A stretch of 64,000 nucleotides of DNA. Source: Alphaproteobacteria bacterium (GTDB lineage: Bacteria > Pseudomonadota > Alphaproteobacteria > TMED109). This document shows, piece after piece, positions 3,530 through 27,853 of the stretch. Location: the NCBI GenBank assembly GCA_022825705.1, contig JAJDWH010000036.1:1-64000 (forward strand). Direction: 5' to 3'. The notes beneath the pieces are model-generated. The model was given only the letters and a program-made list of their open reading frames with translations, made no database searches and was not told where the DNA came from. Made by a program: the position numbers and the translations under genes. The number at the start of each line of letters is the position of its first letter. Position 1 is the first letter of the stretch.

Positions 3530-3604
3530 TTACCTCGACATCTCGATGCCGAACCATTGGACCGCAGCAAAGGCCGCCCCGCCGGCAAGCGAAACCCCTA
3601 GCGC
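3530..3604 (-). pseudogene. Remnant of a cytochrome b561 gene
   Basis: The translated minus strand reads GVSLAGGAAFAAVQWFGIEM before a stop, which matches AVQWFGVEM in the middle of the intact cytochrome b561 gene at 5830-6372. The nucleotides also match (for example catctcgatgccgaacca here against catctcgacgccgaacca there). About 25 residues survive; the rest, including the haem-binding histidines, is gone or unrecognisable. This looks like a decayed partial duplicate on the other side of the IS110 element. Confidence 0.5.
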
Positions 3605-3760
3605 GGTATGAGTTGACGGCTCCACGTCCCGGTCGACGTGGGCTCCCTCTCCGCCTAACGGAGTCCGTGGGTAATCGGCTGTTCGCTTGTCAACACACAA
3701 GATGGGGGCCTTTCCGTGCGGACGCATGACACAGCAGGCCCCAGCGCGACGCGCGTCCGC

Positions 3761-3849
3761 TCAATCTTCCTCCGCAACGGCCGGAACTTTCCGCCTTCTG
3801 CGTTTGACAATCCGGCGCCGGGCAGCCCAAGCGTGCAGATCTTCAATCT
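3761..3849 (-). pseudogene. Excisionase/AlpA-type HTH gene, C-terminal piece cut off by IS110
   Basis: Reading the minus strand leftwards from the IS110 end gives IEDLHAWAARRRIVKRRRRK and then a few residues to a TGA stop at 3761-3763. This is the normal tail of small excisionase-like helix-turn-helix proteins (xxDLxAW followed by a basic end). It joins in frame to the N-terminal piece at 5548-5716 when the IS110 element and one CT core are removed, giving VRYKIEDLHAW across the join with family-typical spacing. The rebuilt protein would be about 85 residues. Confidence 0.75.
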
Positions 3850-3866
3850 CTCAAGTAACACATCCG

Positions 3867-5276
3867 CTAAGCGGCTGTTACAGCTGGGGAAGGGATGTCA
3901 CCGTCGGTGGGTCTGATCAGCTCGTAGCCGATGGCCCTGGCCTTGCTGACAAGGCGTGCATGGGTGCGCTCGGCGCGCTGTTTCTCCCAGGCCTCGACGC
4001 CCTTCTCGATGTATTCCTGCCCCCGGGTCACCATCAGGTAGATCAGGCAGGCGAGTTCGCGCGCGGTCGCGTTGACGGCGACGGCCGCGTCCTTGCGGGC
4101 GAGGCGGGAGCGGTGCCGGGCGCCGACGAAGGACTGGCTTCGCCGGGCGCCCACGGCGGCCATGCGCAGCGCCTGCCCGACCGGATTGACCACTTTCGGC
4201 GCCCGGCCCGGCAGGGCCTTGCCGCCGCTGATCCGGGTGCCCGGCGCGACCCCCAGCCACGAGCAGAAGTGCTGGACGGAGGGGAAGGCGGAGAAGTCCG
4301 GGCCGATCTCGGCGGCGACCGTCAACGCCGTGCCCGTGCCGATGGTCGGGATCGCCGTCAGATCGACCCCCATCATCCGGTGCAGGGCCGCGCGCATGGC
4401 CTTGTCCGAGCGCGGATCGGTCAGGCGCCGGGCGGCCGGGGCCCCGCCGGACGATCCGTCGGCCGGGGCCCCGGGGCTGCCGGCCGACGGCGGCGCCGGC
4501 GGCGTCAGGTCGTCGATCATGGCCGCCATCCGCGTCTCGCAGGCCTGGATCTGCTGCTCCAGGAAGTCGTAGCGCTCGAGCGCCTGTTCCAGCGAGAACA
4601 GGTGCTCCTCGCGCCACGTCCCCTCCAGGCTCGCCGCGATCGTGTCGGCGCTGGCCTTGATCGCGCGATGCCGCAGCGACGCCAGCCGGTGCGGGTCCCG
4701 CTCGCCGGCCACGATCGCCCGCACGATCCGCAGCCCCGTCACCCCCGCCAGCTCGGAGATCACCGAGTCCAGGCGGACGTTCATCTCCGTCAGCGCCTTC
4801 TGCATGTGCTGCACGCTGCGCGACCGGTCCGCGATCAGCCGCCGCGCCTGGCGCACATACGCGCGGAGCGGGCAGATCGCATCCCGCGGCCGGAACGAGC
4901 CGCGCAGCAGGCCATACGACTGCAACTGCCAGATCCACTGGCAGTCCAGCACGTCGCTCTTGCGGCCCGAGATCTGCTTCGTCATCCGCGGCGACACCAG
5001 CAGCACCTCGAACCCCGCGCGCTCCAGCACCTCGTACACCGGAATCCAGTACACCGACGTCGATTCCATCGCCACCGTCTTCACCCCGCACGACGACAGC
5101 CACGCCGACAGCGCCACCAGACCCCGCGTGAACCCCCCGAACTCCCGCACCGGCTCCGCCGCACGCTCCGGTGAGACCGCCACCCAGTGCCGGTCCTTCC
5201 CGATGTCGATCCCGGCACAGTCCGGGTTCACTACCTGCAGGCTCTGCAGCCTCCGGGTCCTCGTCTTGCGCGCCAT
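3867..5276 (-). CDS. IS110-family transposase (DEDD recombinase)
   Basis: Full-length 469-residue transposase that catalyses excision and insertion of the surrounding element. The N-terminal RuvC-like DEDD domain shows GIDIGKDRH (first Asp), AMESTSVYW (Glu) and KSDVLDCQW (paired Asp). The C-terminal Transposase_20 domain has PTIGTGTALTVAAEIGP, then SWLGVAPGTRISGGK with the conserved serine of the SGG motif. A proline/glycine/serine-rich insert near residues 255-285 separates the two halves and makes the protein longer than many relatives. The ATG at 5276 has GGAG about 8 bases upstream. The frame is intact, so the element may be active. Confidence 0.95.
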   Translation of the reverse strand: MARKTRTRRLQSLQVVNPDCAGIDIGKDRHWVAVSPERAAEPVREFGGFTRGLVALSAWLSSCGVKTVAMESTSVYWIPVYEVLERAGFEVLLVSPRMTKQISGRKSDVLDCQWIWQLQSYGLLRGSFRPRDAICPLRAYVRQARRLIADRSRSVQHMQKALTEMNVRLDSVISELAGVTGLRIVRAIVAGERDPHRLASLRHRAIKASADTIAASLEGTWREEHLFSLEQALERYDFLEQQIQACETRMAAMIDDLTPPAPPSAGSPGAPADGSSGGAPAARRLTDPRSDKAMRAALHRMMGVDLTAIPTIGTGTALTVAAEIGPDFSAFPSVQHFCSWLGVAPGTRISGGKALPGRAPKVVNPVGQALRMAAVGARRSQSFVGARHRSRLARKDAAVAVNATARELACLIYLMVTRGQEYIEKGVEAWEKQRAERTHARLVSKARAIGYELIRPTDGDIPSPAVTAA

Positions 5277-5545
5277 CCCGCTCGCTCCTTCATCACACGC
5301 TCAGGGCGACCGGGGCAGAACCCTCACGGCAACTCTCAATCTCTCAAACGAGGTCACGGGCACGCCCGCGCCATCAGCGACGAAGCCGAACAGGGTCGAG
5401 CCAAGCTTGTATACGGATGCTCTCGCACGCCACTGACTGTACGGCTTCCACGACCCCGGCCAACCAACCTCTGGACCACCCGCACCGCGAATGCAACCCC
5501 TCGGTTACTGTCGTGACGAAGCCCTCGCGACCGCGGGGGTGTGGG
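5277..5545 (-). ncRNA. Candidate IS110 bridge RNA region (5' non-coding end)
   Basis: This 270-bp non-coding segment lies between the transposase start and the insertion junction, where IS110-group elements encode the bridge RNA that pairs with target and donor DNA. Two internal stretches copy the junctions: 5336-5347 is identical over 12 bases to 3843-3854 (host tcaat + CT core + element ctcaa), and 5405-5412 is identical over 8 bases to 5545-5552 (element g + CT core + host tgtat). Both copies have the same orientation as the target. Classical left and right target guides would be expected to match opposite strands, so assignment as guides is tentative. No RNA fold was computed. Confidence 0.45.
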
Positions 5546-5547
5546 CT

Positions 5548-5716
5548 TGTATCGAACCTTGCTCCCGAACTTGTAAAACGCCGGGCCGCTGTTCCGGGTC
5601 CGATATCGGTCCAGCGTTCGCCGGGAAATTCCTAGCAGATCGCTCGCCTCCTTCGGCGTCAGATACCGCTCCTCGAGCGGGAACGTGAGACCGGGCCTGC
5701 TGGTTCTTGGCACCAT
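5548..5716 (-). pseudogene. Excisionase/AlpA-type HTH gene, N-terminal piece interrupted by IS110
   Basis: The reading frame from the ATG at 5716 gives RYLTPKEASDLLGISRRTLD and then KFGSKVRYK. This is the MerR-like winged helix typical of excisionases and AlpA-type regulators, which usually sit beside integrases or toxin genes. After VRYK the frame runs into IS110 DNA and loses similarity; the missing end lies at 3761-3849. GGAG about 12 bases before the ATG could serve as ribosome binding site; an upstream in-frame start at 5788 is less likely. No integrase is visible nearby. It is non-functional unless the IS excises. Confidence 0.75.
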
Positions 5717-5829
5717 GGAACTGTTCTCCGGGTCCCGCTGCCACCGCGGGTTCTCTGGGTTGGCTGGGGGGTGCCCCGAAGGGCGCATCAGGCGCGGTGT
5801 CCCCGAGTCGGGTCAGCAACCCCCCCCCC

Positions 5830-27143: not shown

Positions 27144-27853
27144 GGGCTCTCCTGGTTCCGCACCTTCAGGGCGGTGTCCGATAGTTCGCCGCTGATCGCG
27201 CGAACCGTCCTGCGTGAGGCCCTCGGACTCGACCTCACCAGCCGACAGGCCGTATCAAGCACAGTGTCGGCGTCAAGTTCTGTGGTATCGATCACATGCG
27301 CGTCGGTAGCGGCCGCAAGCGGTGCTGCCGCGCGGGACCGGTCGCGCTGGTCACGCTCTCGCATGTCCTGCTCAACACGGGCTTGTATAAACGGCTCTCC
27401 GCGGCCCCGCAACTCCTTGACCCGCCGAGCTAACCGGACTTCGGGCGATCCGGCCAGAAAAATCTTCACGTCGGCGTCGGGCAGTACCACGGTTCCGATG
27501 TCCCGTCCGTCGAGCACGGCACCGTCCGCCCCGCCGGGCGGATGACGCGCAAAGTTCCGCTGGCGCTCCAGCAGCGAGTTCCGAACGCCCGGGTGCACGG
27601 CCACCTTCGAAGCGACACGGCCCACACGTTCACTCCGCAGATCGGGCTCGGCCAGGTCCTGCATCGTGACGGCCCGCGCTGCTTCCTCGGCGCCGACCGG
27701 ATCGGAGCCGTCGCCGCCGGTCGCGAGCACGCGGGCGGCGACGGCTCGGTACAGGAGCCCGCTGTCGAGATGGGCCAGGTTGAACCGTTCCGCCAGTCCC
27801 CGGGCCAGCGTGCCGGTGCCGACTGCCGCCGGCCCGTCAACCGCGATGATCAC
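27140..27853 (-). CDS. cmk: Cytidylate (CMP) kinase, P-loop lysine replaced
   Basis: Phosphorylates CMP and dCMP. The 237-residue protein has family features: LDSGLLYRAVA (CMP site), LDGRDIGTVVLPDADVKIFL, and the LID arginines in RVKELRGRGEP and RDQRDRSRAAAPL. The P-loop reads GPAAVGTGTLA: the position normally held by the ATP-binding lysine (GxxGKGT) is threonine (Thr13). The rest of the motif is intact and the gene sits in its usual aroA-cmk-rpsA place, overlapping both neighbours. Either this lineage tolerates the change or another residue compensates. Confidence 0.9.
   Translation of the reverse strand: MIIAVDGPAAVGTGTLARGLAERFNLAHLDSGLLYRAVAARVLATGGDGSDPVGAEEAARAVTMQDLAEPDLRSERVGRVASKVAVHPGVRNSLLERQRNFARHPPGGADGAVLDGRDIGTVVLPDADVKIFLAGSPEVRLARRVKELRGRGEPFIQARVEQDMRERDQRDRSRAAAPLAAATDAHVIDTTELDADTVLDTACRLVRSSPRASRRTVRAISGELSDTALKVRNQESP

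What the first reader, a model, noticed from the sequence alone, without database searches (positions are those of the whole stretch)
5277..5545. Possible bridge RNA whose sequence copies both insertion junctions
The 5' non-coding end of the element contains tcaatctctcaa (5336-5347), identical to the left junction (3843-3854), and gcttgtat (5405-5412), identical to the right junction (5545-5552), about 60 bases apart. A 12-base match in 270 bp is unlikely by chance. Guides of IS110 bridge RNAs are expected to match the target around the core. However, both copies have the same orientation, whereas left and right guides should address opposite strands, so the arrangement may differ from the described one.
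Basis: partly seen in the sequence, partly recalled or inferred. Interest (0 to 1): 0.75.

Follow-up and report, generated by a model that had tools for sequence, protein, structure and literature searches.

The report
Bridge RNA of an IS110 element
The two repeated strings are real guide sequences in the RNA of a jumping gene: one reads the site where the element landed, the other reads the element's own end; the system is known, but its guides lie in an unusual order.

Summary
The element is an IS110-family insertion sequence on the minus strand (5545-3850, recombinase 5276-3867). An uninterrupted copy of its target in a congeneric genome fixes its ends to the base, with core AG at each end. 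The 8-base match is a left target guide (LTG): ATACAAG is target plus core. The 12-base match is a left donor guide (LDG): TTGAGAG is the element's right end plus core; its last five bases lie in the flank. In relatives each LTG matches its own left junction (32 of 40; shuffled mean 2.3) and each LDG its own right end (35 of 40; shuffled mean 7.2). A two-loop RNA with 22 of 30 covarying pairs covers 5459-5292. One real difference from IS621 and ISEc21: left guides lie 3' of their hairpins and the right target guide 5', the order reported for IS1111, although the RNA is upstream of the recombinase as in IS110. No right donor guide was found. New variant of a known kind; transcription and activity untested.

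The parts
3850..5545 (-). IS110-family insertion sequence between its two AG cores (1696 bp; LE begins at 5545, RE ends at 3850)
   Evidence: empty site in G024 contig 53 aligns 565 of 573 bases without gaps across the joined flanks, one AG only
3867..5276 (-). IS110 recombinase, 469 aa; DEDD-type and SG motifs present (roles of the residues recalled and from PMC11208158)
   Evidence: Pfam DEDD_Tnp_IS110 and Transposase_20; NCBIfam transpos_IS110 E 1.9e-77; motifs located
5292..5459 (-). predicted bridge RNA (covariance-model match, 163 positions)
   Evidence: 97.9 bits; the window and copy C40 are the only two matches at E up to 0.001 in the own genome; both are in the model's training set
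5436..5441 (-). predicted right target guide (RTG), 5' strand of the target loop; pairs at 5 of 6 positions with right flank ATTGAA, one of them G-U
   Evidence: register found by a scan over the RNA, retested with new elements
5414..5432 (-). hairpin 1, apex of the target-binding loop
   Evidence: helix 3
5406..5413 (-). left target guide slot (TATACAAG; 7 matched bases 5412-5406, core AG last)
5404..5405 (-). handshake-like dinucleotide after the LTG (CT); its first base equals the first base of the LE, the second does not
   Evidence: family test
5350..5375 (-). hairpin 2, apex of the donor-binding loop
   Evidence: helix 6, 100% of cells paired
5341..5348 (-). left donor guide slot (TTTGAGAG; 7 matched bases 5347-5341, core AG last)
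5546..5552 (-). left target ATACAAG with left core AG (5547-5546); belongs to the target, not the element
   Evidence: present in the uninterrupted site
3848..3854 (-). left donor (RE end) TTGAG with right core AG (3849-3848)
   Evidence: TTGAG is not at this place in the uninterrupted site
3842..3847 (-). right target ATTGAA (flank)
5504..5509 (-). left arm of a short subterminal inverted repeat (AGTAAC)
3854..3859 (-). right arm of that repeat (GTTACT), next to and overlapping the left donor
5546..5788 (-). 5' part of the interrupted excisionase-like HTH_17 gene; its 3' part continues from 3847 downwards
   Evidence: intact 117-codon stop-to-stop frame in the G024 empty site, HTH_17 E 1.1e-12

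Best explanation
5459-5292 (minus) encodes the bridge RNA of an IS110-family element. SHOWN FROM SEQUENCE: the exact insertion point; a two-loop structure conserved with compensatory changes; an LTG that equals the left target plus AG core; an LDG that equals the element's right end plus AG core; and, with weaker but repeated statistical support, an RTG complementary to the right target. INFERRED from IS621: the recombinase binds this RNA, the first loop pairs with target DNA and the second with the joined RE-core-LE of the circular element, and strands are exchanged at AG. Bases after the LTG tend to equal the first bases of the LE, which fits the 'handshake' pairing known in IS621. In both loops the left guide is 3' of the hairpin, and the right target guide is 5' of its hairpin. 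This is the order reported for IS1111 seekRNAs and the reverse of IS621 and ISEc21.
For: Empty site with a single AG. LTG 32 of 40 and LDG 35 of 40 distinct elements match their own ends at 6 bases or more, against shuffled means 2.3 (max 7) and 7.2 (max 14) in 1000 shuffles. Seven AG-core elements not used: 6 of 7 LTGs match the own left end by 7-8 bases. Structure: 92.4% of cells paired, 22 of 30 pairs with two-sided changes, 0 of 500 shuffles reach the covariation score, slid versions 37-48% paired. RTG: register 5' of hairpin 1 ranks first of 228 scanned; fixed in advance and with all anchors right, 123.5 of 235 against 77.8 shuffled, 0 of 10000; the ten new pairs alone 28.5 of 50 against 19.7, P 0.0011. 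Handshake-like match 25 of 30 at the first base against 13.5, and avoidance of the cognate right target, 4 of 32 against 9.5.
Against: The single-sequence fold is no more stable than shuffles (z +1.12). No right donor guide was found. RTG pairing is poor in many elements; the runner-up register had z 3.7 against 4.4; in a column-based scan a place 3' of the donor loop scored higher (4.5) than the RTG place (4.0); Watson-Crick pairs in the first three positions of the ten new pairs reach only P 0.050. One structure measure, further pair types, is not special (54 against 50.7; 61 of 500 shuffles). Shuffles do not remove relatedness. LTG match fails in 8 of 40, LDG in 5 of 40. Nothing here shows that the RNA is made or that the element moves.
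Confidence: 0.93

Rival explanations
1. Bridge RNA with the ordinary IS621-like order: the left guides are as described, but the true right guides lie 3' of them and the 5' RTG signal is an artefact of relatedness.
For: A register 3' of the LTG start scored z 3.7 against 4.4; a place 3' of the donor loop beat the RTG place in the column-based scan; right donor guide not found; shuffles ignore phylogeny.
Against: LTG and LDG sit 3' of hairpins within covarying helices, whereas IS621 has them 5' (PMC11208158, passages). The 5' register kept its signal in ten new pairs (P 0.0011), with 5-base runs in L181 and L228. The neighbouring base tracks the second core base: C with AG in 33 of 36, T with AA in 11 of 11, the AA elements being close kin.
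Confidence: 0.13
2. The strings are only duplicated recombinase binding sites or chance repeats, with no RNA guide.
For: Short direct repeats of ends occur in many elements (general knowledge); single-sequence fold not significant.
Against: Variable guide slots sit in a fixed conserved frame and track their own flanks or ends in most elements tested. The left string matches target DNA, which differs between elements.
Confidence: 0.02
3. The RNA family is real but this copy no longer moves.
For: Only two complete copies in the draft genome; many fragments in the genus.
Against: Open 469 aa frame with its motifs; exact guides and ends; flanks 565 of 573 identical to the empty site, so the insertion is probably recent (inference).
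Confidence: 0.25

Closest known systems
IS621 bridge RNA (IS110 group; PMC11208160, PMC11208158)
   Same: recombinase family, RNA in the upstream non-coding end, target loop then donor loop, guides that include a dinucleotide core, handshake-like bases after the 3' guide of the target loop
   Different: core AG instead of CT; left guides 3' of the hairpin instead of 5'; 7-base matches of the left guides; recombinase 469 aa and only weakly similar (phmmer E 5.9e-7 to 8wt6)
IS1111 seekRNAs (ISEc11, ISPa11 and others; PMC11187229)
   Same: top-strand match (right guide) 5' of bottom-strand match (left guide); a subterminal inverted repeat is present
   Different: RNA upstream of the recombinase gene instead of downstream; the repeat is short (5-10 bp) and its left arm lies 31-42 bp inside
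ISEc21 seekRNA (IS110 type; PMC11187229)
   Same: upstream non-coding region
   Different: reported guide order (section 12) is the reverse of the one found here
ISPpu9 / ISPpu10 (Pseudomonas, REP targets; PMC1525189, passages)
   Same: those elements lie in REP sequences with 2-bp direct repeats; the seven P. zanjanensis copies here all lie at one REP-like site with AG on both sides (that the site is a REP is recalled)
   Different: not compared directly; the published ISPpu10 RNA figure could not be seen, so it may already show this guide order

Membership tests
IS110 family | DEDD RuvC-like domain plus Transposase_20 domain with catalytic serine | tested here: met
   domains; SG motif located (role of the serine from PMC11208158, not tested)
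IS110 family | non-coding RNA with target and donor guide loops | tested here: met
   by sequence only; expression not testable here
IS110 group (IS621 type) | bridge RNA upstream of the recombinase (long LE, short RE) | tested here: met
   LE 269 bp, RE 17 bp (ORF with the ends)
IS110 group (IS621 type) | left guide 5' and right guide 3' of the loop hairpin | tested here: not met
   left guides 3' of hairpins; RTG 5'
IS110 group (IS621 type) | right donor guide in the donor loop | tested here: inconclusive
   no register stands out
IS1111 group | bridge RNA downstream of the recombinase | tested here: not met
IS1111 group | subterminal inverted repeats of 7-17 bp near both ends | tested here: not met
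   6 bp in the window element; 5-10 bp in 29 elements, left arm 31-42 bp inside
IS1111 group | right (top-strand) match 5' of left (bottom-strand) match | tested here: met

The most novel reading that the evidence does not exclude
A whole branch of IS110 elements (relatives from Proteobacteria, Cyanobacteria and other phyla) carries an upstream bridge RNA with IS1111-type guide polarity. Relative to IS621 the RNA is mounted in mirror orientation: the 3' guide of each loop, with handshake bases, reads the left half, so the 3' donor guide reads the end far from the RNA gene. This could be the intermediate behind the proposed move of the RNA from one end of the element to the other (proposal in PMC11208160, section 12).
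Probability: 0.47. Interest if true: 0.6.

Novelty: new variant of a known kind. Interest (0 to 1): 0.45.

Why it matters
It gives an IS110 branch whose left guides, core (AG) and exact ends can be read straight from sequence, with a natural before-and-after pair for the insertion. If the guide order is confirmed, RNA location and guide polarity are separable traits, which bears on how IS110 and IS1111 diverged and on the choice of new programmable recombinases.

Tried and rejected
Rfam: no family in 5250-5600 at E up to 1 and only a cobalamin riboswitch elsewhere in the window; five relatives gave only a group II intron. Single-strand folding was uninformative. A right donor guide was sought over three anchors and not found (an earlier scan gave scattered z up to 4.6 with no consistent run). 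The first LTG extraction (LTG 36 of 51, LDG 44 of 51) misread several loci; I re-extracted with a stricter frame and give. RTG counts (four rows of the AA-core group; nine rows, among them L051, L053 and L126) used a wrong anchor in some rows; one search repeats the test with the anchors mended and its numbers are the ones given (one search had 110 against 74.3; new pairs P 0.0086). AA-core elements have poly-A guides, so their LTG matches say little. Is ATTGA of the 12-mer part of the guide? Identity beyond the core on that side is 5 bases in the window, 2 in three elements and 0-1 in the other 30 of 34 (L044 and L078 have no flank and count as 0), so it is probably coincidence, perhaps helped by handshake pairing. 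A scan of viral contigs with six peptide patterns of the recombinase matched nothing.

Full report
OBSERVATION. Both repeats are at the stated places. TCAATCTCTCAA occurs only at 3843 and 5336 in the 64 kb. GCTTGTAT occurs at 5405, 5545 and once elsewhere, at 27381. On the element's strand (minus) they read TTGAGAGATTGA and ATACAAGC.

THE ELEMENT. The ORF 5276-3867 (minus, 469 aa) is an IS110-family recombinase: DEDD_Tnp_IS110 and Transposase_20, NCBIfam transpos_IS110 E 1.9e-77, weak similarity to IS621 in the PDB, E 5.9e-7. A second copy lies in the own genome on contig 40, 77% identical in DNA over window 3924-5540.

EXACT ENDS. A congeneric genome (G024, contig 53) holds the flanks without the element. 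Window 5546-5800 matches with one mismatch and window 3530-3849 at 98%, and the two matches overlap by 2 bp. The joined flanks align to it over 573 bases, 565 identical, no gaps. The empty site reads GGTTCGATACAAG-ATTGAAGATC. So ATACAAG is target, the element starts at 5545 with CCCACACC, and it ends with TTGAG at 3850; AG (5547-5546 and 3849-3848) is present at both ends and once in the empty site. Another congeneric genome, G025, has the same region uninterrupted at 79% identity (444 of 561). The interrupted gene is an excisionase-like HTH_17 protein.

WHAT THE TWO STRINGS ARE. ATACAAG in the RNA (5412-5406) equals left target plus core: a left target guide. TTGAGAG in the RNA (5347-5341) equals the element's right end plus core: a left donor guide. 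In IS621 the left guides pair with the bottom strands of the left target and left donor and the right guides with the top strands (PMC11208160, passages). Both strings are left guides, so they share orientation. ATTGA of the 12-mer lies in the right flank.

TEST ACROSS RELATIVES. The search for related loci kept the best 80 of 115 loci. I used 53 of the 80 (27 left out: further copies from genomes already represented, and the partial matches L077 and L118) plus the window and C40, 55 in all. Fifty of 55 show the conserved frame, CCCG or a close variant, then N8 ending AG or AA, two bases and TGG/TGA, followed by the donor-guide frame (L046, L050, L111, L121 and L122 do not). Ten near-duplicates were dropped. 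Of the 40 left, 32 LTGs match their own left junction at 6 bases or more (shuffled mean 2.3, max 7 of 1000) and 35 LDGs match their own right end (shuffled mean 7.2, max 14). Misses: LTG 8 of 40, LDG 5 of 40. The own second copy is instructive: LTG TGCAGGAG with junction GCAGGAG, LDG TTCGAGAG with right end TCGAGAG. In 28 loci read later, 23 showed the frame and 5 did not; seven AG-core elements among them were not, and six of the seven LTGs match by 7-8 bases, the miss being L222. L183 and L220 share the segment before hairpin 1, differ by one base in the LTG, and each matches its own junction.

STRUCTURE. One sequence folded alone is not more stable than shuffles (z +1.12). The alignment of 27 relatives carries a clear structure: 92.4% of 789 cells paired, 22 of 30 pairs changed on both sides, covariation score 0.576 against 0.230 shuffled (0 of 500), slid versions 37-48% paired; the count of further pair types is not special (61 of 500 shuffles reach it). 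The structure was derived from this alignment, which favours it over slid versions. The covariance model R1 finds only the window copy and C40 in the own genome, both in its training set. Outside the training set, 27 matches at E below 0.01 fell in 26 of 58 held sources (some are near-copies of training members and some sources are fragments without this region), and 10 matches, two of them the own genome's, in 8 of 398 genomes of the phylum.

GUIDE ORDER. In this structure the LTG follows hairpin 1 and the LDG follows hairpin 2. In IS621 LTG (A50-U58) and LDG (A123-C130) precede their stem loops (PMC11208158, passages). A scan of 228 registers for complementarity to the right target put the best one 5' of hairpin 1 (z 4.4; next 3.7; 32 elements). 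Against this, a column-based scan ranked a place 3' of the donor loop higher (4.5) than this one (4.0). Retested at the fixed register with all anchors right, 47 distinct pairs score 123.5 of 235 against 77.8, 0 of 10000 shuffles; the ten new pairs alone 28.5 of 50 against 19.7, P 0.0011, though their Watson-Crick pairs in the first three positions reach only P 0.050. The pairs come from 43 of 50 earlier and 14 of 25 later frames that had a right flank; nine identical pairs and one without anchor were dropped. The next base tracks the second core base: C with AG in 33 of 36, T with AA in 11 of 11, the AA group being close kin; the base after it does not pair with the first core base in the AG elements. 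In the window RTG and right target pair at 5 of 6 positions, one of them G-U. Siddiquee et al. report the top-strand match 5' of the bottom-strand match in IS1111 seekRNAs and the reverse in the one IS110-type element tested, ISEc21 (PMC11187229, abstract, passages and section 12). So this branch has an IS110-like RNA position with an IS1111-like guide order. In searches and in the passages and sections I saw, there was no statement of this combination. Figures are not held, and the ISPpu10 panel of Durrant 2024 might show it.

HANDSHAKE-LIKE BASES. The first base after the LTG equals the first base of the LE in 25 of 30 (shuffled 13.5, 0 of 5000), the second in 14 of 30 (7.9, P 0.007). The first avoids equality with the cognate right target, 4 of 32 against 9.5 (P 0.008), the second does not (9 of 32 against 7.8). 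In the donor loop the trends are weak: non-cognate right target 13 of 32 against 10.7 (P 0.027) and 10 of 32 against 7.9 (P 0.24); cognate LE 2 of 30 against 2.2 and 2 of 30 against 5.6 (P 0.037). IS621 handshake guides pair with the non-cognate DNA, and cognate pairing inhibits exchange (PMC11208158, section 11). Relatedness is not removed by these shuffles.

SUBTERMINAL REPEAT. In 29 elements a 5-10 bp inverted repeat links the LE (31-42 bp inside) to the RE next to the left donor: mean 7.5 against 5.6 shuffled, max 6.3 of 300.

NOT FOUND. The right donor guide, an Rfam family, and any evidence of transcription (none could be sought with these tools).

VERDICT. A real IS110-family bridge RNA.

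Noticed in passing
G000 contig 21:142786-142933 (L006, L173); G026 contig 67:4473-4622 (L174): Two MITE-like short derivatives keep LE and RE of this element family but are too short (about 150 bp) for the gene or the guides. The own-genome one ends TTGAGAG (window type), the other TCGAGAG (C40 type), so each fits a different donor guide; the left junction of the second is unclear.
   Followed up: partly
window 5788-5546 and 3847 downwards, minus strand: The insertion splits an excisionase-like HTH_17 gene within its helix-turn-helix domain (KVRYK/IEDL); intact in G024.
   Followed up: partly
window 43667-43480, minus strand: Cobalamin riboswitch, 130.8 bits.
   Followed up: no
Nostocales HT-58-2 copies L079-L087, L105: Nine of ten copies share a longer left flank (GGTGCAAGATGTGAG) with ten different right flanks, as if the element lands at the edge of another repeat.
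   Followed up: no
Bradyrhizobium, Microvirga, Agrobacterium and related loci (L098, L100, L103, L108, L124, L182): A sub-branch uses core AA and left target guides that are nearly all A.
   Followed up: no
L074 3339-3460: Group II intron match (36 bits, threshold 34) just downstream of the recombinase match in Paracaedibacter.
   Followed up: no
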